Shown one piece after another: positions 2,944 to 62,378 of a DNA stretch of 64,000 nt. The stretch is from positions 63,891 to 127,890 of the forward strand of contig PDUO01000003.1 of the NCBI GenBank assembly GCA_003008705.1, in the 5' to 3' direction. The notes beneath the pieces are model-generated. The model was given only the letters and a program-made list of their open reading frames with translations. It was not told where the DNA came from and ran no database searches. The position numbers and the translations under genes were made by a program. The stretch is from Pezicula radicicola (taxonomy: Eukaryota; Ascomycota; Leotiomycetes; Helotiales; Dermateaceae). Each line of letters opens with the position of its first letter. Position 1 is the stretch's first letter.

Positions 2944-4845
2944 CTACCCGCACAAAATCGGCGGAGCTAACGAATTAAACGCTCTATACTGCTGGATGCA
3001 TACATCCAACTCATTTACAACATGTACAACAACCGCACTCTGCAACTCAGCATCATCCAACTTCGTCGCAACACCAAAATTACAATTCAAGCACTTCTCA
3101 ACAAGTCTGCCATACGTCATATTCAACTTCTTATGGACCGATTCACCAAGTCTGCGGGCTGCAATGAAGTCCGCGACTTGGTTCAGGGTATCTCCACGAC
3201 TTGGATCTTTGTCATAGAGGCTTTCAAATGGTGCATCGTTGCCAAGTTCTATCAGTACAACGCCAAGGTTGAAGAGTGTTGCGTTTGCTGCTAAACTCGA
3301 GGCATTGCCGCTAGGTCGTGATATTAGGCGTGATGAAGTGGCTGCCGAGAGCTGGGCCTCCACGTAGGGATCCTCAAGCAATAGCTTAGATTGAGAGGCG
3401 CATCCGTCGCCAAACAAGTGCACATCGCTGCTGGTCCAAGTTTCAGACAGCCAAGGTGTTGAGTGAAATCGCAGCACGGCTAAGGATAATAGTTTTGCTA
3501 GCCTCAACTTCGCTATCCAGTCTTGCTCCTTCTTCTCATCCGCAGCCTTCTGCAGGACGTCCTTCAAGGATGGCAATTTCGACGTACCAAGGGGTGACTT
3601 TGGGCCTTGATTGGGATAGACAAAATGTCTAAATGTCTTCGTCTTCTCTAAGAATCCGATACATGGCTCTTCAGCTGATCGAACGGCTTGGATCTGCACT
3701 TGTCGGAAGTACCGACAAAGCTTACCTATAGTACAGAGGTCTAGCTGTGGGCCTATCTGAGTATGGGAATTACTCGATGAAGCCGATGAAGAGCCCATGC
3801 TAATGGATGTGAGATCAAATTTTACACTTCGCTTTACGGCACCCATCTTCTGTAGTGCCGATTGAAGTCCAGCGGAAGGCTTGGGCGTTGCAGCTATGGG
3901 ATTTTGCAATGAGTCACTTGGAGCAGATTCAATTGCAAGCCAGAGCGGCTCTGCTCGAACCCTTTCCTGAGTGCAAGCCACAGACATGTTAAAACGCACC
4001 TTCGAGGCAGTATGTCGACAAGGTTGTTCCACTCTCAAAGACATTGTCGCAACATGTTCTGTACAATCATCAGATGTCCATCCAGAAGCCAGGACGTCAT
4101 ATAACCGTATTGACGCTTGTTGCGTTGTCTTTATATTACATATCGTCGTATTTTCTACAGTCGTCGAAGTTGATGTGGGAGTAAGTGTACCTAATTTTCG
4201 TATTTGTGCAGATATTCTACCGAGGTCTTCGTTATAATCTCGTAATTCGTTGGTAATTTCGTTTAGTCGTGTCTTTGAGAAGCTGATCTTGATTTTCTGA
4301 CGGAACATGGACCAGGTGCCTTTGCCTTTTGATTTCTAAGAAATTGTCAGTTATGGATCCTTTTGGATGCTCATACAAATAAGGATCCGAGAATTTACAT
4401 CCGCCCTATGTAGGTGGCATGAGGTGTTGGGATATGGAATTGGCTTTGTACTCACATTCCCTTCCAGAAGATCCTTGAACCCCGCTGCCTCTTCCAAAAC
4501 CTCTTCCAAAGTATCGTTAATCAGATTCAAAGTCGATACGCAAGTATTATATGAAGTTCCCAAAAGCCCCTCCAGTCGCCGAGACAAGGGACCATCATTT
4601 CGACAAGGATGATTCGGATCTCCAAGTATATCTCCGAGGTTTTGTCCAACGGCCACTAGCAATAGTTGGCACTCGTTATGAAATATCGCCCTCTGCGTAT
4701 CAAGTCTAGCCGTGAATCTTCGGATCTCTTTGACATGCCGTCTGTACGTGACGAATGGTTGGAAGGTAACTTCGTAGTTCTCGACTGCTGAGATGATGAG
4801 GGGTACTATGCCGAGAGCGAGACTGGCGATTGTAACTGGATCCAT
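2944..4845 (-). CDS. DUF7580-type fungal protein, 2 exons, 593 aa
   Basis: Exons on the minus strand are 4845-4456 and 4335-2944, with an intron donor GTGAGT and an acceptor TTAG. I chose the start at 4845 because MDPVTIASLALGIVPL is the usual beginning of this family; an upstream in-frame Met adds only 11 residues. The N-terminal 130 residues are a hydrophobic helix plus a helical segment typical of NLR-associated fungal proteins. The C-terminal part carries the DUF7580 pattern: a region with LLSLAVLRFHSTPWL, then DPYVEAQLS, then a helical end with FNLGVVLIELG, reminiscent of a degenerate protein-kinase C-lobe. These proteins are frequent near fungal NLR and ankyrin genes; their biochemical role is unknown. 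The gene is divergent from the C2H2-ankyrin-LIM gene about 520 bp away. Confidence 0.82.
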
Positions 4846-9709: not shown

Positions 9710-10178
9710 CGTCGAAGTCAATCTGTTTCCATAGAATGCCCATGTATCTCATCGTAAATTAGCTCAGGAACAACTTGGCTGGCAATAAAGATTCTCGTCA
9801 TCCACTTAGGATTACTGGCATTCACTATTAGATGCAATTTTTGCAAGTCCGTTCGTTCGCATTCATCCAAACCGTCCAAGATACAGCAGCGTAAGACGTT
9901 CGTGATAATATTTTTGAATAGAGACCACTAGCCCGGAAAGCGTTGTTTGGGAGCCTACACATCATGACTCTCAGGGTCGTACAAGTCAGACTTACTTCTC
10001 CAGAATCGTGCTTCGGAGCATTTGAATGATCGATCTTCTTTCTGGCCTACTCTATCATAGAAAAACTGAAGGTGCAGAACCTCAGTTGACACTCACATCG
10101 TGCTGCATGACGCTCTCGCACCATGAATGTTATTCCTGTCTTTCCTCCGCCCAGTTTGCTAAAAAGCCATAGCAGGTC
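9710..10178 (-). pseudogene. NACHT NTPase relic
   Basis: Read on the minus strand, a degenerate P-loop (LLWLFSKLGGGKT) lies near 10175-10123. A segment like the FF.R....ED...K..EA. part of NACHT proteins lies near 10065-10000, and a clear Walker B block (CILDGLDECERTDLQKLHLI) near 9890-9830 is followed by the TRIFIASQVVPEL sensor-like strand. These pieces sit in different frames with stops between them, so the gene is dead. It is probably a former NLR, in the same neighbourhood as the live NLR at 19-22.5 kb. Confidence 0.7.
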
Positions 10179-10561
10179 AGCGCTTGGGCTGTTCAGTCAG
10201 ATTTTGTGTGTAAAGTAAGCGTTTAAATAAGTGCGGCGAAGAGAGTAAAATCGTGTGGTTGTGAGGAGGTTTCCTGTCTACAACCGTTTTCTCCTGACCA
10301 GAGCGCTAGTGATTTGTGGTGGGATTCGTTTGCTCCTGTCCACGTGATTATGTTATCAACCTTTCTCCTTGCTTCATCTTGTAGAGCCCGCATCTTGTAA
10401 CACAAATTGAACGGCTTGCTGCCTAGTAACCATCACGTGCTCTGGTGCCTGCACCTGGTGTATAAGAACCCATCTCGTCGCCCCTCTACATCTCCATCTC
10501 CTCCTCGTAAAAAGAATAGTGCCAAAGGTTTCATATCCGTTCTTTACTCAACCCTTCCATC
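10179..10561. other. Intergenic upstream of the small conserved gene
   Basis: No gene was recognised. The pyrimidine-rich stretch near 10480-10510 (CCCCTCTACATCTCCATCTC) just before the next start codon is typical of a fungal 5' leader or transcription start region. Confidence 0.4.
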
Positions 10562-16877: not shown

Positions 16878-17567
16878 TTAACATATTATTAAATGGAGGA
16901 AACTATGCCGGAAGAAGTCATCCCGTGACTCTGAGATGCTCAACCGGTCAGACGCACACTCCCTCGTGTCAGCTACGAGATGTTCAAATAGCACAACGGA
17001 GTCTCTAACACGGGATGCATCATCGAGTAATGTAATTGTATGTCTCTTTGCAGCTTCATACACTTCACGTTCAGCAGATGAAAACTCGAGATGTATTTCG
17101 TTCACACGGGAATGAAGAATGACCACGGTCTTCGTCCGACTTATGGTGATAGCCTTGACTAAGGTCTTCAGTCTTAGGTAGCCTTGTGGATGCCCACGAT
17201 GCCACGGCCGAGAAATCTCCTCCTCGAAGATACTCTGTTCAGAATAGGGGTAGACGCCTAAGAACTGGACAATGCTCGCGAAGTTGGTGAGTTTGTTTTG
17301 TATAGGGGTGCCGGTTACTGCCCATCTTCTCTCTGAGCGCAGAGCGCCGCATGCTCGTGCCAGTTGACTTTGCCTACTTGTATAAGAATTGATTCCACTC
17401 CTGGTGATGCTGGTGGTAGCCGCCATCGAGTTTATCGGAAGGGCAAGGAAGTGTGAGGCTCTCTTCTGCTGAAGGCCGAGTCTCCGCATCGACAAGAAGC
17501 CGACAGATAAACTTGTGGCATGTGACAACGAAGTTTGTGTTGACGCTTTTACAGCAGAGGTCCTCAC
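16878..17567 (-). pseudogene. SNF2-family helicase fragment
   Basis: A 229-codon minus-strand frame contains ARACGALRSERRWAVTGTPI then QNKLTNFASIVQFLGVYPY, EEEISRPWHRG, LRLKTLVKAITISRTK and LEFSSAEREVYEAAKR. These are the motif III-IV region of Rad5/HLTF-like SNF2 ATPases. The P-loop, DEAH box and C-terminal helicase lobe are missing, so this is about a quarter of a gene. The residues before TGTP lack the expected DEAH-box sequence. Called a truncated pseudogene, probably carried in by duplication. Confidence 0.7.
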
Positions 17568-17734
17568 ATAGACCTCAAGGTGGCGTGTAATTTTGTGCTA
17601 AAATTAAATACGTCCAGAATAGCCCATCAGTGCTGAGGCGCTGGGTGTTTGCAGCTTTGTGCTTCATGATGTCAAGCAAGCGATGACAAGGACTGATTGT
17701 ACGTGGCAGTATTCTCATCTTCAGGATCTAGCTC

Positions 17735-18714
17735 CTACGTCTCCCTACTAACGTTGTCGCCGCCATGCCTACCTGGACGCAAGTCCTTAAAATCCACATT
17801 CTTAATGACTCCAGCAACTGCAACACCCCCATTATCGGCAGTGACATCCGAGATATCTTGATTCATCTTTAACTCTTCCCTAGAAGTGTTAATAAATCCC
17901 GTTAGAGCTAACCCGTTATTTATTGCCTTGATCCCTTTGATCTTCTGTCCCGTACGTTCATACACTGTTTTCGCGAGAGCTTCCTTACACATCTCCCTGA
18001 AGGCAGTATTGGCCGCTCGCTGTCTTCCAAGCTCTTGGAGAAGCTCCTGTCTGCTCTGCTCCGACTCATAGCTCTGCTCACTGGCCCCGTCCACTGTAAG
18101 TTGCTGTAGACTGCGTTCTATTTCCGTCGTTTCGTTGCCTGCTCGGGTGACCTGTTGCTGAAGGACGGCTTCATTCTGCTGAAGCATCATATCCTTCATC
18201 TCTTTCATCAGACTCTCCTGACGGGACGTGGTTATACTGTGGCAACGTGTTAGTATAATGGATACCCTTTCCCATCGAGGAAAAATAGGTACATCGTCGC
18301 CGTAGACAGCGCTATGCTGAGAGTGCCTTTGCAGTCACCGAGCTGCCCCTTGAATGTCTTGATCCTCTCCTGTCCGAACAGTCCAATCTTCCATCTATCA
18401 ACCCAAAACTTCTTTTCTTCTGTAGAGTGTCTCATCCAGTGATCCATCTGCGACTGAAATGCTACGCATGCTCTATCATAGTTTTCGACCGCATGCTTAA
18501 TCTGATCGCTCAGGATGATTTTAGAGGAATCACCATGGACTACCTTCTTCAGATTCTGCAGAACACGCTCGATAGCCCGAAGATCGGCACTGATGCTTTT
18601 GACTGTGTCTGGGGCATCTCTGATGCTGTCGATAGTCTTTGCAAGGAACTGGGCGCTCTGAAGAGCTGCCGTGGTGATACCTACAACTGAGGCGGTGAGG
18701 CTGAGAGGGTCCAT
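17735..18714 (-). CDS. Fungal N-terminal STAND-associated domain protein (PF17111-like) with C-terminal amyloid-like motif, 2 exons, 307 aa
   Basis: Exons on the minus strand are 18714-18293 and 18236-17735, with a 56-nt intron. The start at 18714 gives MDPLSLTASVVGITTAALQS, the standard beginning of this family. A longer in-frame start exists but adds an atypical leader. Residues 1-140 form a helical bundle domain often found at the N-terminus of fungal NLRs, here as a stand-alone protein. The middle is coiled (Gln/Glu-rich, residues about 145-220), followed by a conserved FREMCKEALAKTVYERTGQK block. Residues about 269-291 contain ISDVTADNGGVAVAG, which aligns with the N-terminus of the divergent NLR (ISGVSANNNSQVVTG). 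I infer that this is the effector half of an NLR-effector pair, switched by amyloid templating. Whether its bundle attacks membranes is unproven. Confidence 0.82.
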
Positions 18715-18973
18715 CACAAGTGAAATAATATTCCAAAGGAAATAGGTGAACGGATATTTGACCGAAGCGAAGGCAAGATAATTGTCGAGTGGAATTCGGG
18801 GGCTGAGTGGCTGCGCCCCAGCCAGATGCTGAGTGGTTGGTAACAAATCATCGCGCATGTCTTGCCGCCGCCGCTCCAGCAAGCCTGACGAGCCATTTAA
18901 TTACTTGTTGATTACAACCACTTATCCAAGCCGAATCGCGAAGGACAGTGTGTTTCTAAACATCCCAAGCTCG
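18715..18973. promoter_or_regulatory. 259-bp shared promoter of the effector-NLR pair
   Basis: Only 259 bp separate the two start codons, so both genes must be driven from this divergent promoter and are probably co-expressed. No clear TATA or factor site was assigned. Confidence 0.55.
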
Positions 18974-21900
18974 ATGTCCGGCAGCACTCAATTCATCAGC
19001 GGCGTGTCCGCCAACAATAATTCGCAGGTTGTCACAGGCACAGTCCAGGGATCTGTGTACTTTGGAAACAAGGAAAGTAAGTTGTATTCGGCCGGCTAGC
19101 GTTCTCAGTAACGGAGAGTTGACAGGTAGTCTAGATTTGAACGAAGTGCTGAGGACCTTACCTATCGCTGTGGACGCGCCGTTCAATGCGTACCAGCGAC
19201 AACACGACCCCACCTGCCTCCCCGATACCCGTGTCGACCTCCTCCATGAGATATACAACTGGGCTGATGGAGAAAACTCGCCGAGCATCTTCTGGCTGAG
19301 TGGTTTGGCCGGCACCGGCAAGTCCACGGTTGCGCGAACACTGGTCGCTAAATACTCAGACACGGGCAGTATTGCGGCTAGCTTCTTCTTCTCAAGAAGC
19401 GGCGGAGAGGGTGGTTATTTACGTCATGCTGAAAGATTTGTTACAAGCGTTGCAGTGCAACTTGCGAACAACGTAGAGCCTCTAAAGCGGTCCATATGCG
19501 ACGCTATTACCACGCATGGCGACATTGCCAACCGTGCTCTCCGGGAACAATGGCGCCATCTGATTCTTGGCCCACTATCGAAGACGGGCAGCAGCAGCCG
19601 ATCCCGGTATATTCTTGTCGTTGATGCGCTCGATGAATGCGAGGATGAGAACAATATCCACATCCTTCTGCAACTGTTAGCGGAAGCTCGGTTATTGGAG
19701 ACTGTTCAGCTTCGAGTGTTCATGACTAGCAGACCCGAGGTTCCAATCCGAAACGGCTTTATTCAAATGCCAAATGTAGCACATCAGAACTTTGTGCTCC
19801 ACAGTATATCATCGTCGATTGTAAATCATGACATTCGTATTTTCCTGGAACGCAATCTCCAACTTATCGCCCAGGAGCAATTTCTCGCGGTTGACTGGCC
19901 GGGCGAGCAGACTATCAAACGTCTTATCCAGAACGCAAGCGGGCTGTTTATCTGGGCGGCCACTGCATACCGCTTCATCCGCGAGGGTAAACGGTTTGCA
20001 GCAAAGAGACTAGACACGATCATGCAGCAAAGCAGCACAGCTATAAACGCGCCAGAGAAGCATCTTAATAAAATTTATGTCACTGTTCTTCGCAACTGCA
20101 TTTGTCCAGACTATTCAGATGAAGAGGCACAGGAGCTACGATTCATGTTGAAGGACCTACTTGGGAGCATTGTAACTCTGCTCTCTCCACTTCCTACTGT
20201 GTCCCTAAGCAACCTCCTTTTTATCCCCCAAAACGAAGTCGATCAGACACTAAACGATCTTCATGCGATTTTGGACATTCCAAATGACGCAAGTCGCCCG
20301 CTCCGTTTACACCATCCTTCATTCCGCGACTTCCTCCTTGACAGAAAGAGGTGTGGAGATTCAAATTTCTGGGTCGACGAGAAGCAAGCGCATCAAAGCC
20401 TTGCTACGAAATGCATTCAGCTCATATCTGCCTGTTTCAAGCAGAAAATATGCAGTACCGGCCGACCAGATGCGCTTGTTGCCATATGTGATGAGAGCCA
20501 GCCAGGTAAGCTTGTGACCGACGTTGACCAAAAGCAAGTAGAACAGCACCTTCCACCTGAGATGCAGTACGCATGCCTCTACTGGATCCAGCATCTTCAG
20601 AGAAGCGGGACCCAACTTCACGACGACGACCAAGTGCATCAGTTCTTGCAGGAGAATCTCCTTCATTGGCTTGAGGCACTTGGATGGATACAGAATGTCT
20701 CTGAAGGGATTCATTCCATCACTTCATTGGAGTCAGTTGCTCTTGTAAGCCAACCTTGCAGCGTATGGGAAGGTATCCAACTAAATTATTATTAGACTAG
20801 CGATTGTCCCAAGCTATTAGCGTTTATCCATGATATGAAGCGATTTACGCTTTACGGCCGGTCAGCGATCGAGCAGGCTCCCCTCCAAGTATATTGCAGT
20901 GCGCTTGTTTTCGCTCCAACAATGAGTATAGTGAAGAAGCAGTTTAAAGACCAGGTACTTAGATGTATCCAAAGATTACCCGTAGTCGAAAAGGATTGGA
21001 ATGCATTGTTGCAGACCCTCGAGGGCCATTCGGATTGGGTCACAGCCGTGGCATTCTCGCCTGACGGCAAGGTGCTGGCGTCGGCAGACGACAAGGCGAT
21101 CAAGCTGTGGGACGCCAACACAGGCGCGGTGCTGCAGACCCTCGAGGGCCTTTCGGATTGGGTCATAGCCGTGGCCTTCTCGCCCGACGGCAAAGTGCTG
21201 GCGTCGGCAAACGACATGACGGTCAAGCTGTGGGACGTCGGCATAGGCGTAGTACTACACACCCTTAAAGGCTGGGTTAGCGCTATAGCCTTCTCGCCGG
21301 ATGGTAAGGTGCTAGCATCGGTCTTGTACAATAAGATAATCCAGCTGTGGGACGTTAGTACAGGCGTAGTGCTGCAGACCCAGGGCTATTTGGATCAGGT
21401 TAGAGCCTTAACCTTCTCGTCAGACGGCAAGGTACTAGTATCGGCCTCACGCAATAAGATGGTCCAACTGTGGGACGTCAGTACAAGCACAGTGATGCAG
21501 ACCTTCGAGGGTCATTCGGATCAGGTTACCGCCTTAGCCCTCTCATCTAACGGCAAGGTGCTAGCGTTAGCAGACTACAAGATGGTCGAGCTGTGGGATA
21601 CTAGTACAGGCGTAGTGCTGCAGACCCTTAAGGGCCACTTGGGTCCAATCCAAGCCGTAGCCTTCTCCCCGGACGGTAAGGTGCTAGCGTCGGCGTCTTC
21701 CGATGAGACAGTCAAGCTATGGGACACTAGTATAGACGCAGTACTACAGACCCCTGAGGGCCATTTAGGTTCAGTTGACGTCTTAGCCTTTTCACTAGAC
21801 GGCAAGGTACTAGCATCAGCGTCCTTTAAGACAGTTAAGCTATGGGACGCTAGCACAGGCGTAGTACTATACACCCTTAAGGGCCATCTAGGCTGGGTTA

Positions 21901-22544
21901 ACACTATAGCCTTCTCGCCGGGTGGTAAGGTGCTAGCATCGGCGTCCTCCTCTGACGGGACAGTTCAGCTATGGGACGCCGGTATAGGCGTAGTGCTACA
22001 GACCCTTGAGTGCTATTTAGATGAGGCCCAAGCTATAGCCTTCTCGCCAGATGGTAAGGTACTAGCGTCAGCGTCTAATAATAAGACAGTTAAGCTATGG
22101 GATGCTAGTACAGGCGTAGTACTACAAACCCTTAAGGGCCATTCGGGTTGGGTCAACGCTGTGGCATTCTCGCCCGACGGCAAGGTGCTAGCGTTAGCGT
22201 CCGACGATAAGACGATCAAGCTGTGGGACACCGGCACAGGCGCGGTGCTGCAGACCCTCGAGGTTGACGCCGTTGTTCAAACCCTCTCGTTCTCCAATGA
22301 TGGGACGTTCCTAGAGACTGATATAGGAATGTTACGTACTACATCTCTTACCCCTGGTGAAGTTCTTTCTCAACAGATCCTTTCATACAAAATATTTGTT
22401 AAGGAGCAGTGGATAACCCATGGGATGGAAAATGTACTTTGGCTTCCTCCCGAGTATCGGCCGAATTGTGCTGCTACTCATGGCAGCATTGTTGCTCTCG
22501 GGCATAAGTCTAGTCGCTTGTCATTCTTGGGATTCGCTTTCTAA
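18974..22544 (+). CDS. NACHT-WD40 NLR with N-terminal amyloid-like motif, 3 exons, 1156 aa
   Basis: Exons are 18974-19076, 19126-20744 and 20796-22544; total 3471 nt in one frame. The short first exon encodes MSGSTQFISGVSANNNSQVV and the rest of a Gly/Asn/Gln-rich motif (residues about 8-30) that matches the C-terminus of the divergent PF17111-like protein. NACHT follows: P-loop GLAGTGKST at 94-102, Walker B YILVVDALDECED near 196, sensor strand VFMTSRPEV, then winged-helix/linker with LHHPSFRDFLLD. Exon 3 starts with TSDCPKLLAFIHDMKRF, the usual NACHT-to-WD40 connector. It then encodes ten WD40 repeats (about residues 645-1060) plus a degenerate eleventh and a tail with WLPPEYRP. This layout is that of the HET-D/E/R and NWD2 receptors, where WD40 sensing of a non-self ligand exposes the N-terminal motif and templates the partner. 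The ligand is unknown. Confidence 0.92.
21006..22270 (+). repeat. Tandem WD40-encoding array, ten near-identical units plus one degenerate
   Basis: Units of about 41-42 codons share the frame L.TL.GH...V.A.AFSPDGKVLAS...K..KLWD...G.V. Framework residues hardly change, while the residue before V and the residue after V in the first strand vary strongly (W,W,W,Q,Q,P,S,W,E,W and T,I,S,R,T,Q,D,N,Q,N). Outer units (1, 2 and 10) are GC-rich at third positions (GTGCTGGCG, CTGTGGGAC). Inner units carry many C-to-T or G-to-A changes (GTACTAGCA, CTATGGGAT). Unit 3 is shortened by about three residues. Confidence 0.85.
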
Positions 22545-25363
22545 GTTTCCCTGTACCTCCTCCCCGCTCACCTCCGTTGCAGTTAACGTCAATTTATACT
22601 CTTTTGAGAGCCGCAATGGCATGTAAATACTATTGAATTAGAAATGTAACTGCTTTGAAATCATAACCGCTAGGCTTTATATAGGTCCATGCCCTATGCT
22701 AGGTAAGTGAGTGGCAAGATGACCAACCAAGAGTGACAAATCCGACGTGTAGAGTAGGACAATCCGAAGGGCACTGTATTACATCCGTACGACGTGGTTG
22801 GGTGCAGTCCAAAAATAAAAGACTCAAGAGACTCAGACGCCACGGCATCAAATTGCTTCAATAATCCATCACTCGATGAGCCGTAACCTCAATCACATCA
22901 TCATTCCTCATGACTATCCTCTCCATAATAATGCCAACTCTCAAATTCAACACCTCGTCTTCCCCTCACCCCTCCCATAGAATGAATAAATACCATCTCT
23001 GCTCCCATCCACAGCCTCTTAAATCATACATTTTCTAACCACGAGGAATCCCCAACTCATATACGAACCCTTACTAACCCCATCTGAGGATCATCGAACG
23101 TTCTGATCTGGACCTGAATCGCAGTTCCTATTCTGGTTGGGTTCGCAAATGTGACAGCCTCCTAAGACAAGTTGACTTTCAAAATGTTTTCCTACTTCAA
23201 TTAATAAAGTTTAACGCTACAGCACTGCTGCCGGCGCTACAGCACTTACGCGAGGCGCTGCCGAGACGCTGCCGACGCTACAGCCTTACGCGAGATGCTG
23301 CCGACATTACACGAGCGCTAGAGCCCTTACGCGAGATGCTGCCGACATTAAACGACATGCTGCCGAGACGCTGCCGACACTACGCGAGATGCTGCCGAGA
23401 CTACCGAAGTTACGCGAGGTATTTTAGTGCCGGCAGCATTTTAGCGAGGGCTCGGCAGCGTTTACGCGAGATGCTGCCGAGGCTATAGAAGAACGTGACC
23501 TTGTAGTTTATCCCCATAATGTATTATCTACCTTAGTAACAAGAGCTCGGAAAGAGGCAGCAGTCCAAGATAGAGAAAGCTGTTGTTGTCAAAGATGAAC
23601 AGGTCAATTTACTTGGTCAAATTGCGAGTCAAAGTCACCGCTGCACGTCTCTGTCAATTTCTACTCTAGGAGGTTTCCTTACACATTGAATCCCTAGGGA
23701 AAGAAAGGTCGATGAGTCTAAAGTTTGATAGGTCTTAATTAGGGGAGAGCTCGTTCAAGGGATAGTAGTTAATAGTCGGGCTAGATTAAAATCCCAAAGC
23801 TAAGAAAATATTAATATCAGACAGTAAGTGATATTTCAACCCTAATCCTAGTAGAACTCAAGAGTTAACAAAAAAAAAGGCAGAACTACGTAGAACATCC
23901 CTTTTCCCACCTTATCAAGCCATTCATTCAGCCCTATAATCTTCTCTTCAAACCCCCTTTTCCCCTCTTACATCTAGCTCTAGAATCACAAACATACCAG
24001 TACCTACACTAAAAACTTCCAAGTTTCCAAATTTTCGAACCATTTAGTTCATTAGTCCTAAAATCTTTTAAGTATTCCTTTCTCCACTAGCTAGAATTAT
24101 ATAATCCAAGCCGTTTTTCTTATTCTTTCGGCTCTCAAGGCTCTAAGACTTCCGAAGGAACTACAATCTACTTCGAGCTCTGAAAATAGCTTCGGGAATT
24201 TTTGTCTCTAGAGTATAGCATATTCACTGCCCCTCTACATTTAACTATAATTAGTTCCGGCCCTGTCCTGTACCTACTTGTCCATGAAGCCCTAGCTCGA
24301 CCTTTAAAAACCAACCCCTTTTTATAACCGAAGGAGAAGGGTAGAGTAAAGAGCACAGTCAGCCAGGCAGCCTCGTAACACATTTCTCGTAGCTATTCTA
24401 TTGCTAGATAAATACAAATATCGTGATTTCTTAAACGTAGGCTTCTTGGTATGAATATGTCGAGAGTCTCGTAGTTTTATAAATGAGGTACTAGTACACA
24501 CATTTTGATTTTTAGGATGAGAAAGGGTACTTACTATACATGCACCCTATATATTAACTACAAGAAACACAATCATGTAATAAAATTCAAATGTGTTATA
24601 ATTATCCACATGTTAATATTTAATATTTTCACAAGGAAAAAACAGTACTATCCATCGATTGCCCTATAGCTAAGATTGCAGACAATTTACTATTGTTAGG
24701 AGATACGAACGTTACTGTATCGGTCCCTTTGTTCAGCCGTTGATAAAAATGTGTCGAAATTCACGATTTCGCTGTACAGTACTTACGAATTTTCATTATT
24801 TACCACTACAATAGTTCGTCTCTGGACTTACTGGGTAATATCTAATCTTGAGAAGAATGACCCCTTGGACGTTTCTCGCACGAGAACTCCCCAAAAACAA
24901 GAGATATAGAAGTCGCCATGCGATTCACGAGCCGCGATGTAACGTAATTCTTGTGATTCAGGAAGTTGAAAAATTGGACGCTCATGCAGTACTTTGCGAA
25001 TAGAAACAGGCAAGAACACTTCGCATTTTGAGCTAGCTAGCTAACGTCTGGTAGATGTGTATGTGATATTGAGTTTTTGTAGAAGGGATAAGGTATGCTA
25101 GGTATGGTAGGAGATCTATGCGAGCCCTTATATAAATAATTACATTATCATCTCTCCTGTAAAAGTAGGCGCCAATCTATTTAACAAGAATAAGAACATC
25201 TGCAATCGTACCTACCTACCAAACAACCAACCAACCAACCAACCAACCGAACGTTTCTTCATTCCACATTCCCATGTACATCATACATACATATCCCGCT
25301 ACCATAGCATTCCCAAAAGTTTCTCAATATACATTTCATCTCGTTTTCCATACGCAGGCTCCC
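22545..25363. other. Long AT-rich intergenic region
   Basis: Contains the GCTGCCGA repeat described separately. Otherwise I see no gene. Near 24,000-24,400 there is pyrimidine-rich sequence with no coding signal. A (CCAA)n run lies at about 25,225-25,248. Confidence 0.4.
23218..23490. repeat. Degenerate GCTGCCGA / TTACGCGAGATGCTGCCGA array
   Basis: About ten copies of GCTGCCGA with TTACGCGAGATGCTGCCGA as the longest common unit. Copies in the reverse direction follow near 23440 (GCCGGCAGC, CTCGGCAGC), which allow hairpins. This is a GC-rich island inside AT-rich surroundings. It has no open reading frame. Confidence 0.7.
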
Positions 25364-27394
25364 TTACAAAACAACACCCTTGTTCTGCTTCTTGTCCACC
25401 CGGTAATTCTTCCAGACGGCAATGGAAGGGATGGCAAGAACCAAAATGGCGGTCGATGCAATACAACCATACTTTTGACTGTAGCCCCAAGCATAGTTGA
25501 TCGCGTCTCTCGTCGGGGTGCCCATGGGGTAAGTCGCCTGTGCGTATGTATAACCACCGTCATTGATGGCGCGGAAGTCGGATTTGGTGTCCTCGGGCAA
25601 ATGTGACAAGAGAGCTCTTGGGAACGTGTTGTTGTAGATGGCAGCAGCGACCGCATATCCGATGGCTCCACCGAGAGAAGATGACAGTCCAATGAGGGAA
25701 AGCATCATCGGCACACCATCACGATCTGCGGCAGCCATGACAGCCATATCCTCACCAATGACGAGAGTTCCACCAGAGAAAGCAATGAAGATCTGGCACA
25801 TGACGATGAAACCAATGTTGCTATCTTGACCACGGAAATGAATCATAAGGCCTGCACCAAGGAACATGAGGGGGAGACCGAAGAAGAGACAAGTATACTT
25901 GAAGTGCTTGGTGTATCTGATCCATATACCAAAGATGACGGACCAGAAACAGGAGCCGACATTGTAGATTTGACTCATGTATCCAGCCATGGAAATGCTG
26001 AGGTCGTAGACGACGATGACGAAGTAGTAGTAGTATAGATCCCAGGTGTAAAAAGAGAAGTAGAGGATTGCTGCCAGGCAAAAGGCACCGAGGACGGTAC
26101 GCTGTTTGAAGAGTTCCCAACGAACAAAGTGGACCCTGGCAAAGTACTTCTCCCAGATAGCGAAGGCTGGGAAGAGAAGGATACCAATTACGACCATGGC
26201 GATGAAGGTGGCACTGTGGTACTCGGAGCCGCCGTAGGTTACAAGGGAGAATGGGAGGAGGAAGAGGAGGAAAGCAGCCATGAGCAAGAAGGCTCCAATG
26301 ACTGAGAACTTGTTAGCAGTGTAGGTTGAAGATTTGGGAGGTGGGGGTTCAACTTACTATCAAATTCGTGGGTGTAGTGGATAATGGACTGAATGGTGGT
26401 ACGTCCGCTAATGTCCTTCTTGTAGATGCCCAACTTGATGGCCTTTCTCTGGTAGTACTTGAAGGCGACGGCAAGAGGAACAAAGACGAAGGGCATGATG
26501 ATGGCAAACGCTCCGTATGCCCAACGCCAAGAGGTCATCTTGAGGAAAGACTGTGCGGCGAGAGGACCAACAAAGGCCGTCGCAATGAATGGGGTGCTTG
26601 CAAAGCCCCACGCAAAAGCCCGGTTGCGTAGACCGGTCAAATCGGCCATGAAGACATCCAAGATCAAGTAGATGGAGTCGTAGCCAATCCAGTACAAGGT
26701 GTAACCAGCAGCGTATCCGTTGGGACCATTGCAAGATGCGATGACGATGATGCCGAGAAGATAAACACCCACGAACAAGAGGAAGGCCTCGGCACGGCCC
26801 CAGATGTTGAGTAGTTTCGCAATGGGCAGTTTAATGACACCACCAATGACGGAGGCACAGATGCTGGCCGTCGAGACTTGCGAGGCTTTCGAGAAGTTGG
26901 AATAGGCGTAGTAGATGACATTGTTACCAATGGAGGATTGGAAAGCAAGCATGAAGAAGCATAGCCAGACCCTGAATGAGGAGGGAAAATTAGAATAACG
27001 GGACAAGGGAACCAGGACCAACAAAGCAATTGCAAGTCGAAGAAAGAAGATATATTATGTATGTGATGTGAGGTGAGGTGAGGTGAGAAACTTACCAAGC
27101 ATAGAGAAGCCAGACCGTCTTCTTGCCGTAGGTGAGAGCCGAAGCTTCAGCTTTGGCAACACCAGGTTGGGCACCCTCAGTGATGGTATCAGGATGTGCC
27201 TCGATCTCCTTCTCGTTTCTCGCCTCCAAGCTCAAGGTGTCGGTGTCGCTTCCGGCGTGGCCCAGCGAGGCGTCAGGGTCGGTCTTGTTTGTCACGGGCT
27301 GTTGAGTTGGATCTTCAGCTCCTGTTCCGGTTTCTGCAATTGATTGGGCGAGACGAGCGTCTTTACGACCTCGGACCATATCCAGGACACCCAT
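25364..27394 (-). CDS. Siderophore-iron transporter (MFS, SIT/MirB family), 3 exons, 616 aa
   Basis: Exons on the minus strand are 27394-27096, 26971-26358 and 26301-25364, with canonical GT..AG introns and one frame. The protein has a hydrophilic N-tail of about 90 residues, then about 14 hydrophobic segments (for example [20 protein letters not shown] and [20 protein letters not shown]). SIT-family marks include YAYSNF near the first helices, the long cytoplasmic stretch with [19 protein letters not shown], the [20 protein letters not shown] extracellular loop, and the C-terminal [14 protein letters not shown] region. It should import Fe(III)-siderophores by proton symport at the plasma membrane. 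The specific siderophore cannot be read from the sequence. No siderophore synthetase lies nearby, so it probably takes up foreign siderophores. Two iron-regulator sites lie upstream. Confidence 0.9.
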
Positions 27395-34313: not shown

Positions 34314-36467
34314 ATGTTTGAGGACGGCGTGGAAGACTGCGATGTCATCATCTGCGGTTGCGGACCAACAGGCGCATTGCTATCTGCTCTACTCGGACGA
34401 TTACGGGTGAAGCACGTTGTGCTTGAAAGGGAGCTAGATATCACGACGGACCCGCGAGGAATTGTTCTCGACGAGGATGGCATTCGGATAGCCCAAGGTG
34501 TGGGCATATACAAGGATCTTTTTGAAGATGTCGGCAGCCGTGAGGGACCACCACCCCCTCCCCCCAAAGTTTGACCAAGTACGAAGTGTGGTTCTAATAT
34601 TTTGGCACAGCGATGACCATATTTAGATTCATCCAAGGAGGACAAGGACTGCATGTACGACCATTTCTGCAATTTGACAACAGAACCGTAAGATCGCCCT
34701 CGCCTGTGTCTAGACGAATCGTCTACTGATATCTGTTTTAGTTGGAAGGCGGAACCAGTCATGTTGGATTTATGTGCCACAAACAGCCAAGTTTAGAAAA
34801 GCATTTACGAAAAGCCATAGACTCACAATACGGGGAGATCAGAGCAGGTTGCACAGTGGTAGCCATTTCAGAAGACGAAGAACATGTTTTGGTGGAATAT
34901 GAAGATATTGAAAAGTTATCGCATAAGCTCCGAGGCAGATTTCTGGTGGGCGCTGATGGCAAAACTGGGTTTGTACGCAAGAAATTTCTAGAGCCTCGAG
35001 GCATCATCATGGAGAAAAGTCCAAAGTGCGTATGCCTAGAGCTGTGAATTTCGTTTGCTAACTAGTTCTCTAGATACCCTTATGAAGCAGTCTGGGTGGC
35101 ATTGAATTGGCGTCTCACCCTCCCAACTCCTACATCCCATCCCGACTTTCCATTATGGAGGCTAGGATATACTCCCGAAGAAGTATACGATATTTTCTTT
35201 CCCCGGGACTTCAATTTCATATGCGATCCTACACGTCCGTCTGTATGCGGCCGCTTTGGTCGGACGGAGGACCGTCTATGGCGGTTCGACTTCGTGGTCA
35301 AAGACGGAGAAGATGGCAACCTGATGGCAACTCAAAAGGAGGCGAGCAAGATTATCTTCCCGTATTTGACACATAAGGGGTCTCGATACCGGTAAGCAAT
35401 CCCTATATAGATATACAAAGATTTACTAAAGTAGACATAGTTTGTCTCACGATGTGATGTGGCCATCAGACTGCATTGAATGGATCCGCTCTCGACCCTT
35501 CTCCTTTTCCGCTCGGAGCTGCAACAAATGGTCTCTCAATCGCACCATCCTCTGCGGCGACGCTGCCCACGTCTTCCCACCCTTTGGCGGCCAAGGCATC
35601 GCCTCCGGCTTCCGGGACGCCATATCTCTCTCATGGCGCCTCAAGCTCGCTACTGATCCACAGAACACCGGTATTGACTACGAAGCCCTCTTCCGAGCCT
35701 GGTACGTCGAGCGCAAGCAGCAGCTTGAACGCTCACTCGCCTCGACGGTCGAAAACGGAAATTTCTGCAACGAGCCCTCCCGCCTGAAGGCCTTCATCCG
35801 AAACTGGTACCTCTGGATCATCCAACTGGTGCCTTCGTGGAAGCACGAGCTACAGCTTGGAGGTCGGCGGGAGGGCATGACGAAATACGACTGGGAGCCA
35901 GGACTTCCATTCCTTCTGCAATTTGGTGGCGGGAAATCCTTCCCGCAGGTCTTCAGCGCCACAATTGACGGTCCTGCTTCTCCGATTCCAGAATTCACCG
36001 ATGATGCAATCTTTGCACCACATAAAATGGGCGTCTTTCAGCTTGTCGCGCTCCTTGACTCCGTAGATGACATTCCCACGGTACGGAATGAGCTCGAATC
36101 CCTTTCCTTTTCGGCCGATAAATCCACGTTGCTGGATCTCTCAGAGGCAACCCTGATAGTGCACAACGTAGCTACTCCTCCAACGTCCATAATCAACCAC
36201 AGCAGAAATGGCTCGGCCTCGTCTGCTGAATCAATCATCCGTGTTCTAGAAGCAGCCGAGTACACGGCCGCGGGACTGATGCCCTCGGCCCTCGCAACCA
36301 AATTTCCTCGGCCAGAGCCATTGTTCTATGATCCGGACCGCATCCGAAGGGATTTGGGGTGGGACAAGAAATACGTGTTGGTGAGGTGGGATCGCTTTGT
36401 CTTTGCGTCTTGTAAGGATGTTGACGAGTTGAGAGAGGCAGTGGCGAAAATCAACGGATGCTTTTGA
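34314..36467 (+). CDS. FAD-dependent aromatic-ring monooxygenase (PF01494), 5 exons, 643 aa
   Basis: Exons are 34314-34539, 34611-34687, 34742-35025, 35074-35391 and 35441-36467. All splice sites are GT..AG and the frame is continuous. The N-terminal FAD fold has GCGPTG at residues 15-20, followed by VVLERE. The middle shows the FLVGADGKTG motif (DG box), and exon 5 opens into CGDAAHVFPPFGGQG, the GD motif binding the FAD ribityl chain. Size and layout resemble 3-(3-hydroxyphenyl)propionate or phenol 2-hydroxylases, with a thioredoxin-like C-terminal domain. It should hydroxylate a phenolic substrate with NAD(P)H. The gene is intact, although its neighbours on both sides (P450 and C2H2 regulator) are broken. 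Confidence 0.9.
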
Positions 36468-55955: not shown

Positions 55956-58900
55956 TTAAACCTCCGCAGCCAAAACATCCCTCAGGATCTCACTCCCAGT
56001 CCTCTCCTGAACTTTCTTTACAAACTCCCTCCCAACATCAAATAAGCTCCCCATTACATTCGGCATCCATCTACCCTCTAGCTTCTCAACTTGCACATCC
56101 TGTTCCCTGATTTTATCTTGCAAGAAGCGACGGTAGTGTCCTACGCCGGGACGTAGTAATGAGGAGTGGAATGGGACGTCGATTCCTGTTAGGGGGATGC
56201 TGGCTTTACCACGTGTGAGAGTGATGGGTTCCGTGAGTAGGGAGGAGGCGTGTAGAGACTTGGCGATTATTTGGGTGAGAGAGGGAGTAGAGGTTGTGGT
56301 GGAGTTTGTGTCGAGAAGTGTGGAGGATAAATTGGCTGGGGAAAGTTGTGAGAGGGCGTTAAGTGTGAGTGTCAAGGCGTGGATGTTGCGGAGCTAAATA
56401 TAGGAAAGTAAATTAGTTGATATAATTCAACGTTGCAGTGCAGCTGTTTGGAAGTAGATAAGGGAATATAGGAGGGAATAGCAAGAACATGACTTACGTG
56501 TCCAGCGCAGACATACTGCTCTCCTTCGACATTGAAATTGACGATTTCGAGGAGCTGCTTGCTCTCGTCGGCGATCATGCTTGTTACCCGCCGGATGGCA
56601 TCTTCGCCAAAGCCTGGATAGGTAGATTTGTGAGTATATAGTCGTAAACAAAGCCTTAGAGAGCTTAGGTTTGCCTGGGTAGGAGAGTCTTTTTACCTTT
56701 GCCCACGCGCTTTGGATTGACGGCTACCATGGAGTACCCAGTTTCTCCAAATTCATCTCTGGCCATTGCTGTCTGCATTGCCAATCCTCGGTAGAAGACA
56801 AGGTCCATCATGCTTTCGAAAGGCATGAACTCCGCGAGGGCGGACAAGACACCATACTCGCCAAGGGAATGCCCCGCAAATAAAGCGCCTTCCTGGACCA
56901 GTCCTTTTGCCCGTATATCTTCAAAGGCTGCCTTTTCAAGAAGACAGATTGCTGGTTGGGCGAACTGGGTAGAATAAAGAAGTCCACGTGCCTCTGTGAA
57001 AGTGAAGGACGGTGTGTTTGAGTCCAGGTCTTGGAGCACCGATCTCGAAATAGTGTTCCCATCTGGTGTAGTAGAATCGACTTTCATTGCCAGGTATTTT
57101 TCTCTGATTTTCTTTCCACGCTTGCCGCCGAAATGGATTGTGAGTTCCTTTGGGTTTTCGCGGACGATTTGAAGGATGGACCAGCCTAAGAATAATTAGT
57201 ACGGAGGACATTTGAGAGTGCATATGGAAACTTGCCGTAATTCTCAAACAAGTAAGCATCAGTATCATCCCAAATCTTCTTTGCCACAGGACTTGACTTA
57301 TAGAGATCCATTCCCATGCCGGGGGCTTGACTTCCTTGGCCAGTAAACACATATGCAGTAGGTAGTTGCTCAAACTCTGCCTCGCCTGCTAGAACCTTCT
57401 CATCTGAGTCCAGCTTGAAAGCCTCTACTTTGAAAATCATTCGTCCTTGAATCATGGCAACATGTTGAACTTTTACATTCAGCTCTTCTCCTGGTAAAAC
57501 CTTGGCTAGAAATGAGACGGAGTATCGCCGAGCACGAAGGCGATCTCCGTCGTCAAGAAGATGTTCTAGTACACTGCTGGCAACAGCTGATGTATACATT
57601 CCATGAACAATTGGACTAGATAGATTTGCAATGGTGGCGAAGATGGGCGAAACGTGGATTGGATTGTAATCTTTTGAGACTCGCCCATAATTTTGGCTGC
57701 TCAGAGGCATTTTGACAACCATAGAAGATTTACCCGACCATCCTGGATGCTCCAATTCATGACGCTGAACTGCCGGCTGCCCTTTCCGGGACAGGAAATC
57801 TATCACGAGATTGGCCCGGCAGTTTAAACTTTCAGACATCACCTCTCCGATGAGAATCAATGAATCATTTTGATCCTGAATAAAGACCTCTCCTGTCGTA
57901 CGTAGAGTCTTGAACGTTGTCCGATTCTTCCAGGTGGTATATGTGTACAAGCGAAAGAGAAGGCGTTTTCCAACAAGATTCAGAGAAGCCTTATCGAGAA
58001 GCAGCCATTCTCTATCGCGAAGTAGAGCTTCTTCTATATGCGATACGACATCGAAGATAATATCAGCCTCGTTCTTGCGTCTGAATGTGCTGCTGAAGTC
58101 TGAAAAGGAACCTTGAATGAGAAAGGTAGAGGTCACAGATACTACAGGCTGCTGTTCACGTTCGATGGTGGCACAAACGGCAATGCTCTTTCCGCTATCC
58201 TCAATGGTAACTGCTTGAATTCGAGACGAGACCTCAATAGAATCTCCAATCCGTAGTGGTGTAGCACCCGGCAGCAATTGGAAAGAGTTCGAGAGGTGCA
58301 CTAGCTTGAGGATATCGCCGTCTATATCCCGAACGAGGAGGGGCTTCATCAAACTTTCCCATGCAGGGACAATGCATGCGTTGATCGGAAAGATATCTGT
58401 GTCATGTGGTAATGTGGCATCGTTTGAGTAAGACAAGCCGACGGAGAGCATCCAGTCATTTAGCATCTCGGCTATGAGAACTGTTGGCTTGCCGCTAAAA
58501 GTGGAATGTAGACCATGGCCGATATTCAAATCTGTACCCAACCACAATTTACTGTAGAAAGATTGTACTTGGTGGTTTCTTCTCGCCATGATTTCGCTCA
58601 AAGGACATACTGAGTTGTCTGGGTTGTATCTGAATTCAAGCTCAAGGATGACCGGGACAGAATCCCGAGGTGTAATATGGCGAACATGAATAACGATTTT
58701 AGACTTATTTTTACTACTCATCTCGATAAGTGCGGGAGCGGACCCATTGGAAGTAGGAATAATCGAAACGGTAGACTGAGTAAAATCAATACGCATGATT
58801 TTATCGGCTGTGATCTCAAAGATTCGGCGTAGAAAGTTAGGCTGTCGGGTATTATTTCGAAGGATGTCCTGACTGGAGAACACGGCACGCATCCATCCAC

Positions 58901-61900
58901 TGGTTTGGCTGGCAAGATATTCGAACCATTCGCTCTGGCTCGGAATGATTTCTCCTGGAAGAAGTTGAAAGATTTTCGTGCCCAAGCTTTCCGTAGATTG
59001 GACACTATCCAGAGAAACAGAGCGTTCAAAAGGGGTATCCGCAGTGGCATCCAGAGGGATCTCAGCGTCATTGTAAAACTCCTGTTGGGTCATTGTAATG
59101 AGTCCATTATTTATTCCGTCAAGAATGTCCTTGACAGGCTCGTCCGTGCGCCGAGAATAGCTAGCGCCCACAGGACTGTGTAAAATGCACACTCGACCGG
59201 CGTCTTGATCAACAACCGCATCAACGTCTTCAGATTGCCATAAAGAGTCCTTTTTGAACCAGACGGCGAAGTTCTCGTCAAAAACAGGCACAAAATTGAC
59301 AGGTTTCTGACCGCGAGATCTACATCGATTGACAAACCAGGAGACATCTTCTGGATGAAGTTTGAGGAAGCTTGCTTGAGGACATGAAGTACAGAACTTT
59401 GTCTCCAAACTCTCTGGCTCAGATAACATTGAAGTGGCCATTTCAAAATTGGTGGGTATCCGTTCCATCGTTCGAATAATGAAGTCATGAACCAGAGCTG
59501 AATAGGACCTGTTTATCCATCTTTTCTGGTGAGAAACATACATTAGACTAATCAAGCGGTTAAGAACCTCCGAGTAAGTCATCTCTGAAAGGTCTACAAC
59601 GTCTCCAGCTGAATTTCGGCCGAACCAAGGCTTGGAAAAGTCAGCGTTGAGCCGGCGAATGATATAATCCTTCCGTTTCTCAATGGCTTCAAGTTGCTTT
59701 GCTCGTGGGAGGCTAAAGATCTGCTCGTCCATCTCCTTCCAAAAGAGGACCGCCCGAGTTGCTATCTTGTGGATTGGCTGCCCCATTTCTGACTGGACCG
59801 TTACAATACCACCAATTGGTTTACTGTAGCTCATAGTCCACTCAGAATTCTGGCATCCTGGTGCCTCGCAAATCAAAGCTTTGGCCTGTGGAGAGGTGTG
59901 GGCTTCTTTTGCGACCATTATTCGGCTTCCTAGGAGAATACCGTCGAAAGGCATCTTGGCATAGCCAAACTGGGTTGACCACGCACCGGTCAAATAAGGA
60001 TAGGAGTCCGCAGCGTCTCCAAATCCACTGCCAGCAACTAGCACAACATTTGAACATTGGCGAATCTTGCCGTAAAGATGTAAAATTGGAACATGAAAGT
60101 CCTCGAATGAATGATGGCCTCCTCCTCTTCCACCGGTCCACTGAAGAATAATTGGGAAAGAGGGATAAGCTTTTGCAAGTTCCAGAACATTCATGATTGC
60201 ATCTTCAGATCCAGGCTTCAAGGATAAGTGTCTCAACCCCAAAGTGTTGATATACTCCCCTGCAACCTCTAGATTTGGTACCCCAGCGCCAATTGTGAGT
60301 CCGTCTATAGGATGTCCTTTTTGAGCGAGCTGACGAAGCATCGCTATCTGCCATTTCATTGCATGAGGACTGGCGTATATCAAATTACACGTGATCCCTC
60401 TTCCTTGAGGCACATGGGCAGTGACGTTGGCAATCGCAGCGGACATGCTTTCAGAATTGTAATAACCTCCACCGGCAAGCTCTACATGATAGCCTGCATT
60501 CATAATAGACGAAACAAAATCCCAGGGGACTGTTGTAGGAGTCATACCGCCGATCATGATGGGAGGGGTTCCCAAAAGCTGGCTAAGTTTTGTCTTGAGC
60601 CCAATTTGGCCTGTTGTGGATTTGAAGAGTTGAGGTCTAAACTGCTCTTCCCAGCTTTGGATTCTCATCGAGTCCCTTGGTAGCTGGGGTGCAAATATCT
60701 CAGGCCTCGCTCCAGCACCCTCTTTCAGGGGAACTAGCTGCGTCCCAAAGATCACTCTCACGCCCTTCCCTTCTTTATTCTTCGAGACAATCTCGCCAAC
60801 TCCTTTTCCAAAAGCAAGAATATGAGTGCTCTTGGCTGACCTCAGAGTTGAAGGCCAATCAACATGTTGCGTCGTTACGGCGTCGATAAGCGAGCTGAGA
60901 ACATCAGCTACTCCATTCCTCATATCGGACCCGTCTTGAGAATGATAAACGGGAATTTTCAACTCTGTCGCCTCGAATTTCTCGTTGGAGAGCCGCTCTT
61001 TGATCTTTCGCGCCGCCTCGGTAAGATAAGGAGTGTGGAAAGGCGCACTTATGGGTAGAAACTGATTTTTCACTATGGGCTTCCGGCGGTCAAAAGGAAT
61101 GCGGGATTGATCTAGACCTTCACTGGCTTTCAGGTCCCTTAAGTGCGCATTCAATCCAATCAAAGACCGAGCTGGTCCAGCAACAACATAACTATCTCTA
61201 GTATTTGAGAGAGCTAGATGGAGCTGTTGTCCAAGAGGCAGTTCATTGTTGCATTTTGCAACAACGTCGTCGATCTGACTTCTCTGAAGGCCACCGATAT
61301 GAAGCATCGGTGAGGGCTTGCGTTCTTCATTCTCTTCACTCCCACTTACTAGACTAGCAGGCAAAGGACATTTAGGCGCCGCTCGATGACTTTCATACCC
61401 CAGCCAGAAGAGCATTCTGGTGACTGATCTTGCATTTTCGTAGAAAGATGACCATGAATCAGATCTTGCAATTCCAGCTGCAACAACGATTCCTTGAGAA
61501 TGCCCCGTCACTCCTTGAAGCAGTGATCGTATTTCTCCTGGACTCTTTTCCAATACTTTACACACAACACAAAAATGTGCTAAGCTGATAGCTCCAATGA
61601 TAGGGAAACTAACAGGAGCCGTGGCAAGATAATCTCCATTTGGCACAGTCTCGGGGTGGTCAAGCCAAGTTCTTAAACTGATTTCTCGTCCGTGATAGAA
61701 ATCCGAGGTTTCACTAAGTCGACAGCTTTCAGACAAGACACTGTCTATCGATTCAATCAAATCCTCCAAGAACGGTGAATAGGTGACATAAATATCTCGA
61801 AGTTCTTCAAAGCACCGCGGGTTGAATGCGCCTTGACCTCCAAATACCGCAAGAAGACTGGCGTTCCCTTGCTCGGCCTCCCTGAATAAGGCACTTTGCT

Positions 61901-62378
61901 CTGATCCTGATGATAGAAAGCAATGCGAGAGAGCTGTGTAGTAAGTCCTGAGTATGGACTTTTGTACAGCCGTTGAATCTGGCAAAGTTGATACCAAGGA
62001 ATGTATGTCGGTGACGACTAAAAAGTCTCTTCGGAATACTCTAACCAGCGATCTAATTGCTGACTTGGCGACTTGTCGTTCAAGAAGAAATTGTATGAAC
62101 TGTGCCAAAAGACAAACAGCTGACTCAGGGAGTGAGAACTGTACATTCGACTTTGTTTCAGGCGTCCAATTTGATAATGAGGTAAGAAAAATGGCTTTGT
62201 GGTGGTCTAACGAGTCTACCTGATCTCGTGAGACTGACGTCGTGTGCTCGATATCCTTGTAGTTTAGATAAAAGAAGGCTTGAGATGAGAAGTCATCCAT
62301 GGACTCCTCCACCGATGGGGTGAGGTTGACGAGGGAGGGAGAACTAGACATGTGACTAGAAGATGTGCGTGAAGGCAT
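55956..62378 (-). CDS. Fungal fatty acid synthase, beta subunit (secondary-metabolism type), 4 exons, 2061 aa
   Basis: Exons on the minus strand are 62378-57236, 57185-56697, 56613-56498 and 56393-55956. The summed frame is continuous and the length equals that of fungal FAS beta chains. Domains in order: acetyltransferase with VTGHSQG (Ser294), enoyl reductase with PPIMIGGMTPTTVPWDF and VLVAGSGFGDAADSYPYLTG, dehydratase hot-dog region with GRVSKDYNPIHVSPIFA, and malonyl/palmitoyl transferase with FTGQGSQAPGMGMDLY and AGHSLGEYG (Ser1821). The first intron uses a GC donor (G|GCAAGT) with a normal acceptor; no GT donor restores the frame. The N-terminus is divergent from the housekeeping FAS beta chain. 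Together with the adjacent 2-methylcitrate dehydratase-like gene this suggests a dedicated FAS making a starter acyl chain for an alkylcitrate-type metabolite. The alpha subunit must lie outside the window. Confidence 0.93.

What the first reader, a model, noticed from the sequence alone, without database searches (positions are those of the whole stretch)
17735..22544. Divergent NLR-effector pair with matching amyloid-like motifs
The C-terminus of the PF17111-like protein (residues about 269-283, ISDVTADNGGVAVAG) and the N-terminus of the NACHT-WD40 protein (residues 8-22, ISGVSANNNSQVVTG) align without gaps: identical I, S, V, A, N, V and G at seven of fifteen positions, plus T/S and D/N replacements. 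The genes share a 259-bp promoter. In known fungal systems (HET-S/NWD2 and relatives) such shared motifs form a prion-like amyloid that transmits the NLR signal to its effector. The motif here is not an obvious HET-s-type sequence, so it may be a variant or new family.
Basis: partly seen in the sequence, partly recalled or inferred. Interest (0 to 1): 0.88.

Follow-up and report, generated by a model that had tools for sequence, protein, structure and literature searches.

The report
Fungal cell-death amyloid signalling pair
Two neighbouring fungal genes, an immune-type receptor and a putative membrane-attacking protein, carry matching copies of an already described HET-s-related motif by which the receptor would likely switch on its partner in a prion-like way, so this is another member of a known class.

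Summary
The effector (17735-18714, minus, 307 aa, PF17111) holds two motif copies, not one: R1 (residues 236-256) and R2 (265-285). The NACHT-WD40 receptor (18974-22544, plus, 1156 aa) holds one, R0 (residues 4-24). All three match the published HET-s-related amyloid motif (HRAM) register: Q at 3, hydrophobic or Ala/Thr at 5, 8, 10, 16 and 18, G at 19. In six frames of the window my pattern for it occurs exactly three times, at R0, R1 and R2. Two repeats on a HeLo-like effector plus one on the adjacent NLR is the published HRAM layout, and Q3 without Q16 or Q18 fits the published HRAM2 signature. The pair recurs in other ascomycetes, including taxa tabulated with HRAM2 in 2015. AlphaFold predicts equal strand pairs at both repeats; a family profile weakly matches 6eka_A (E 0.011). 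Templating, fibres and killing are inferred, not shown. Verdict: new member of a known kind.

The parts
17735..18714 (-). Effector gene: exon 1 18714-18293, intron 18292-18237, exon 2 18236-17738 plus stop; 307 aa, PF17111 (PigL_N, HeLo-like) residues 1-205
   Evidence: gene model; PF17111, 97.8 bits, cut-off 27.2; the best homologs align over 96-100% of the spliced protein
17891..17953 (-). R1: first HRAM repeat of the effector, residues 236-256 (Q238, I240, I243, A245, A251, T253, G254)
   Evidence: Q238, I240 and A245 nearly invariant and G254 invariant in 52 aligned sequences
17804..17866 (-).
   Evidence: Q267 and G283 invariant, I269 and A274 nearly invariant in 52 aligned sequences
17738..17803 (-). 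C-terminal tail after R2 (residues 286-307) with an aromatic (F290) and a diglycine, like the post-R2 segment described for HRAM proteins
   Evidence: for the sequence; description of the segment in PMC4518210
18715..18973 (.). 259-bp shared intergenic (divergent promoter) region
18974..22544 (+). NLR gene: exons 18974-19076, 19126-20744, 20796-22544; 1156 aa; R0, NPHP3_N/NACHT, WD40
   Evidence: (residues 1-692 scanned: NPHP3_N 102.7 bits, NACHT 31.2 bits, WD40 47.7 bits)
18983..19045 (+). R0: single HRAM copy at the NLR N-terminus, residues 4-24 (Q6, I8, V11, A13, V19, T21, G22), no charged residue
19248..19733 (+). NPHP3_N/NACHT nucleotide-binding region, residues 76-237
21006..22343 (+). 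WD40 array: ten repeats plus one degenerate unit, spacing 38-43 aa

Best explanation
This is a divergent NLR and effector gene pair that fits the described HRAM2 class: the NACHT-WD40 receptor carries one copy (R0) and the 307-residue PF17111 protein two copies (R1, R2) of a 21-residue HET-s-related motif, and the activated receptor would likely template the effector's repeats into an amyloid that is predicted to release its HeLo-like domain against the fungus's own membrane. Shown here: gene order, three motif copies in the published register, conservation of both repeats across fungi, co-occurrence with R0-bearing NLRs, and a predicted pair of equal strand pairs at R1 and R2. Inferred from HET-S/NWD2 and HELLF: ligand sensing by the WD40 end, NLR oligomerisation clustering R0, templating of R1/R2 into a two-rung beta-solenoid, and cell death. 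The ligand is unknown.
For: (1) My pattern Q3, h5, h8, h10, h16, h18, G19 occurs in six frames of 64 kb exactly three times: R0, R1, R2. (2) 64 of 103 effector homologs carry both repeats in strict form, 16 one, 23 none; of the 82 records that a loose test says reach that region, 64, 16 and 2. (3) In 52 aligned effectors (the window plus 51 of the 103) the invariant tail columns are G254, N257, Q267 and G283: G19 of R1, one loop residue, Q3 and G19 of R2. (4) 12 of 120 listed NLR homologs have the strict motif in their first 60 residues; elsewhere in the same proteins it occurs once in 112,105 positions (expectation 0.05), and shuffled heads give 0.055 on average, at most 2. (5) A profile built from effector repeats alone, without the window and without any NLR, ranks the window's NLR first of 121 NLRs, at residues 6-24, i-E 0.0014 for that small set; its 12 best domains all lie in the first 60 residues of NLRs. 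(6) Ten effector/NLR hits, matched by eye, share species and contig length; 8 of 10 NLRs have an HRAM-type N-terminus, 5 with Q3. (7) Window exon-2 model: strands 238-246, 250-256 and 267-275, 279-285, that is positions 3-11 and 15-21 of both repeats, block pLDDT 83-86; homolog P0007: positions 4-10 and 15-21 of both repeats. (8) A 46-homolog profile finds 6eka_A, a Podospora chain, E 0.011; a tail profile aligns both repeats in register. (9) Loop of 8 aa (published 6-18), R0 nearly uncharged (5% against 17-19%), R0 nearer R1 in 10 of 13 copies (8 of 11 distinct), the trend the paper reports for HRAM2.
Against: No experiment. The published preference for R/K at position 15 is not met (L15, V15, Q15). 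In-register R1/R2 charge complementarity is not specific: a shift of -2 scores lower (-1.68) than in-register (-1.46). The 6eka match is only suggestive (0.011 full-length profile; 0.78 tail-only profile, second behind an unrelated chain at 0.76). Among the 50 rows shown of 552 and of 501 Foldseek matches, and of the VIA-align rows, none is HET-s or HELLF; helices fill the lists. Three same-contig partner NLRs (P0111, P0121, P0124) lack Q3, and two (P0123, P0171) show no HRAM as annotated. My pattern allows Thr at 10, 16 and 18 and was written after seeing the window's motifs. Published HRAM2 sequences were not read (figures and supplements not held). AlphaFold strands do not prove an amyloid.
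Confidence: 0.9

Rival explanations
1. The motif is a new amyloid family, convergent on an NLR/effector pair but not HET-s-related.
For: No Pfam model above its cut-off covers either motif; PF11558 is not among the 6 families listed for the effector or the 25 of 42 shown for the NLR piece; the R/K15 preference is not met; PP core GxQxG and PUASM patterns are absent from both proteins.
Against: Two repeats plus one, register, loop length, Q3 and G19 all match the HRAM description; PF11558 caught only 38 of 155 published HRAM proteins; homologs come from taxa tabulated with HRAM2.
Confidence: 0.05
2. R0 and R1/R2 share a motif for ordinary, non-amyloid binding (a beta-strand docking tag), so signalling works by complex formation, not templating.
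For: Nothing here shows fibres; sequence and AlphaFold strands fit any beta-augmentation contact.
Against: The closest characterised relatives with this layout, HET-S/NWD2 and HELLF, act by amyloid templating (PMC5485727, PMC7889193).
Confidence: 0.05
3. The locus is a decayed remnant: motifs persist but the pair no longer signals.
For: The WD40 array shows RIP-like dinucleotide indices (1.61 and 0.91; thresholds recalled); the next frame, 16878-17597, matches only part of a SNF2 domain.
Against: Both spliced frames are open with short introns; all core motif positions intact; NACHT part has ordinary indices (0.66 and 1.35).
Confidence: 0.08

Closest known systems
HRAM2 HeLo-like/NLR pairs (Daskalov, Dyrka and Saupe 2015, PMC4518210; example named in PMC5485727: Penicillium roqueforti W6Q0M1 and W6PZN6)
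   Same: HeLo-like effector under 310 aa, two C-terminal repeats with Q3 and G19, short loop, adjacent NLR with one weakly charged N-terminal copy, R0 closer to R1
   Different: No R/K at position 15; species not identified here; sequences of the published set not compared directly
HELLF/FNT1 of Podospora anserina (HRAM5 in PMC7889193, passages; I take 6eka to be its fibre)
   Same: HeLo-like domain, two tail repeats with Q3 and G19, weak in-register profile match to 6eka_A
   Different: 6eka has Q at position 18 in both repeats of the alignment; the window has T and A there
HET-S/NWD2 of Podospora anserina (HRAM1)
   Same: Layout two repeats plus one, NACHT-WD40 receptor next to the effector
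   Different: N rather than Q at position 3; PF11558 not listed for the effector; HeLo-like rather than HeLo domain

Membership tests
HRAM NLR/effector pair | Short (at most 310 aa) effector with HeLo, HeLo-like or sesA domain | tested here: met
   307 aa, PF17111 97.8 bits; that PF17111 is the former HeLo-like model is recalled
HRAM NLR/effector pair | Two imperfect repeats within the last 80 residues, loop 6-18 aa | tested here: met
   R1 236-256 and R2 265-285 of 307, loop 8
HRAM NLR/effector pair | Hydrophobic (or T at 10) at 5, 8, 10, 16, 18 and G at 19 | tested here: met
HRAM NLR/effector pair | Adjacent NLR with a single copy at its N-terminus | tested here: met
   R0 residues 4-24, genes 259 bp apart
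HRAM NLR/effector pair | Preference for R or K at position 15 (stated as a preference, not as defining) | tested here: not met
   L15, V15, Q15 (sequences)
HRAM NLR/effector pair | Beta-solenoid amyloid, templating and cell death | not testable with these tools
   Only AlphaFold strands and a weak 6eka match
HRAM2 subfamily | Q at position 3 (N in HRAM1, H in HRAM3) | tested here: met
   Q238, Q267 and Q6
HRAM2 subfamily | No Q at 16 or 18 (marks of HRAM5 and HRAM4 in the 2015 text) | tested here: met
   A16/T18, A16/A18, V16/T18 (sequences)
HRAM2 subfamily | Clusters with the published HRAM2 repeats | not tested
Canonical HET-s prion domain (PF11558, HRAM1) | Match of the effector to PF11558 | tested here: not met
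   Not among the 6 families listed for the effector at E up to 10
PP motif | Central GxQxG | tested here: not met
   Absent from both proteins
PUASM | FxGxGxQxxGxGxF, PNP_UDP effector | tested here: not met
   Pattern absent; effector is PF17111
Sigma motif | About 40-residue motif with threefold submotifs | not tested
   No sigma profile at hand

The most novel reading that the evidence does not exclude
HRAM2 is its own insulated prion-like wire: a glutamine ladder at position 3 takes the place of the asparagine ladder of HET-s, so that this receptor can switch on only its own neighbour and neither HET-s nor HELLF fibres can cross-seed it; this locus, without a close paralog found in its genome, would be the first HRAM2 pair shown to run such a private channel.
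Probability: 0.45. Interest if true: 0.5.

Novelty: new member of a known kind. Interest (0 to 1): 0.3.

Why it matters
It settles the lead: the motif pair is genuine, but fits a class described in 2015. It is a clean, minimal HRAM2-type pair (both repeats and R0 keep every core position) and therefore a good test case for whether HRAM subfamilies are separate, non-cross-seeding channels, a question PMC4518210 leaves open. It also shows that a reader holding one 15-mer can miss the second repeat that identifies the class.
Full report
Gene models and observation. The window lies in a 61-Mb assembly that its protein relatives show to be fungal. Two divergent genes lie 259 bp apart: a minus-strand effector of 307 aa with one intron and a plus-strand NLR of 1156 aa with two introns (models from splice signals, no transcripts). 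The effector matches PF17111 over residues 1-205 at 97.8 bits; the NLR (residues 1-692 scanned) matches NPHP3_N, NACHT and WD40.

The missed repeat. The effector tail has two copies, R1 TGQKIKGIKAINNGLALTGFI (236-256) and R2 MNQDISDVTADNGGVAVAGVI (265-285); the NLR has one, R0 STQFISGVSANNNSQVVTGTV (4-24). In the numbering of PMC4518210 (parts 1-4 of 5 of the text and the tables read) all have Q3, hydrophobic or Ala/Thr at 5, 8, 10, 16 and 18, and G19. That paper describes HRAM effectors with two tail repeats joined as a rule by 6-18 residues, and an adjacent NLR (98 of 155 cases) with a single N-terminal copy low in charge, and names Q at position 3 as the mark of HRAM2. Here the loop is 8 and R0 has no charged residue.

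Chance. The strict pattern was written after seeing the motifs and allows Thr at 10, 16 and 18. It occurs three times in six frames of the window, at the three motifs and nowhere else. Of 331,740 ungapped 17-mer pairings between the two whole proteins, R1 with R0 is best (38); two pairings score 34 (R2 with R0, and an unrelated one at effector 60/NLR 165), so R2 alone would not stand out; 2 of 1000 shuffles of the NLR head reach 38, the highest 43.

Conservation. 103 effector homologs were found. 64 of 103 hold both strict repeats, 16 one and 23 none; 21 of the 23 fail a loose test for reaching the tail at all, so of 82 that reach it the counts are 64, 16 and 2. Across 52 aligned sequences (the window and 51 of the 103 homologs, mostly full length) the tail's invariant residues are G254, N257, Q267 and G283; nearly invariant are R235, T236, G237, Q238, I240, A245 around R1 and D268, I269, S270, D271, A274, V284 around R2. 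So HRAM positions 3, 5, 10 and 19 are held in both repeats, and R2 is conserved at further positions.

Receptors. The NLR search listed 120 of 2341 hits. 12 of 120 have the strict motif within the first 60 residues and 4 more only a looser pattern, of which one (P0210) looks like chance; many of the others carry other N-terminal domains and serve as controls. Outside the first 60 residues the strict pattern occurs once in 112,105 positions. A profile from effector repeats only ranks the window's NLR first of 121 (i-E 0.0014 in that small set) and its best 12 domains all lie within the first 60 residues of NLRs.

Pairs elsewhere. Matching by eye on species and contig length between searches gives ten effector/NLR pairs. 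Eight NLRs have an HRAM-type N-terminus: five with Q3 (P0108, P0110, P0145, P0205, P0211) and three without (P0111, P0121, P0124; P0121 only if Ser is allowed at 16). Two have none as annotated (P0123, P0171). Adjacency is direct, or nearly so, only for contigs of 8,688 and 10,055 bases and for consecutive locus tags LY89DRAFT_687709 and 687710; in P0042 the annotated effector lacks R2.

Structure. The window's exon 2, folded with 46 homologs, shows strands at 238-246 and 250-256 and at 267-275 and 279-285, the same positions 3-11 and 15-21 in each repeat, block pLDDT 83-86. Homolog P0007 shows strands 245-251, 256-262 and 274-280, 285-291, positions 4-10 and 15-21 of each repeat. A 46-homolog profile finds 6eka_A, a Podospora anserina chromosome-3 chain, at E 0.011; a 15-row tail profile gives 0.78, second in its list, with both repeats in register (one row was miscopied, and the corrected run agrees). 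I take 6eka to be the HELLF fibre; that name is recalled, hellf being Pa_3_9900, and passages of PMC7889193 describe HELLF as a two-repeat HRAM beta-solenoid. Foldseek and VIA-align added nothing.

Known or new. PMC4518210 Table 1 lists HRAM2 for Aaosphaeria arxii, Aspergillus fumigatus, Cadophora and others; homologs found here include those three names, though that they are the same proteins is inferred. The trend that HRAM2 R0 resembles R1 holds for 10 of 13 R0 copies (8 of 11 distinct), the window's included (35.4 against 32.7). So the pair is filed as a new member of HRAM2, by stated signature and not by direct clustering. A search for 'HRAM2' or 'HRAM' listed 20 of 575 papers, 3 of them holding 'HRAM2'; in what I read of those three I saw no bench test of an HRAM2 motif (PMC4518210 as above; PMC9815663 outline, sections 19, 24, 33 and passages; PMC5485727 parts 1-2 of 4 and passages). 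Passages only were seen of PMC7885112 and PMC12881547. Subscription papers were not searched. The 2015 text calls the Podospora HeLo-like protein HRAM4 while later papers call HELLF HRAM5, so subfamily numbers seem to have shifted.

Mechanism. By analogy with HET-S/NWD2 and HELLF: unknown ligand, NLR oligomerisation, clustering of R0, nucleation of a beta-solenoid, templating of R1 and R2, release of the HeLo-like domain, membrane damage. Every step after the sequence layout is inferred.

Results against. R/K15 is absent; charge complementarity is not register-specific; the 6eka match is weak; three partner NLRs lack Q3 and two show no motif; no experiment. None of these removes the layout and register match, which carry the verdict.

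Noticed in passing
21000-22400: The WD40 array has RIP-like dinucleotide indices (TA/AT 1.61; CA+TG over AC+GT 0.91) while the NACHT part (0.66, 1.35) and effector (0.73, 1.30) do not (usual thresholds recalled). Repeat-targeted mutation of the receptor's sensor end would fit.
   Followed up: partly
23215-23404: Imperfect minisatellite-like array of units around CGAGACGCTGCCGACACTACG just downstream of the NLR.
   Followed up: no
16878-17597: Minus-strand open frame matching part of the SNF2-related domain (positions 140-267 of 290), perhaps a helicase fragment or one exon.
   Followed up: no
57186-62411: Fatty-acid synthase beta subunit of the Fas1/AflB type with a starter-unit SAT domain; MFS-transporter frames at 25364-27054 and a FAD-binding frame at 35430-36467 lie in the same window. 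A secondary-metabolite cluster is possible.
   Followed up: no
2944-4335: 463-aa frame with DUF7580 (PF24476, 58.4 bits).
   Followed up: no
P0111, P0121, P0124 (same-contig partners of P0004, P0007, P0035): These NLRs (Alternaria, Lentithecium, Aaosphaeria) carry an R0 of the form LxhxGxSATxGxQxFAG without Q3, although their effectors have Q3 in both repeats: an R0 that has drifted from its partner.
   Followed up: partly
G000:C65:48040-48567 and 9772-10194: Further PF17111 matches on the same contig outside the window; the locus at 9772-10194 (L003, L015) shows no strict HRAM2 pattern; the other was not fetched.
   Followed up: partly
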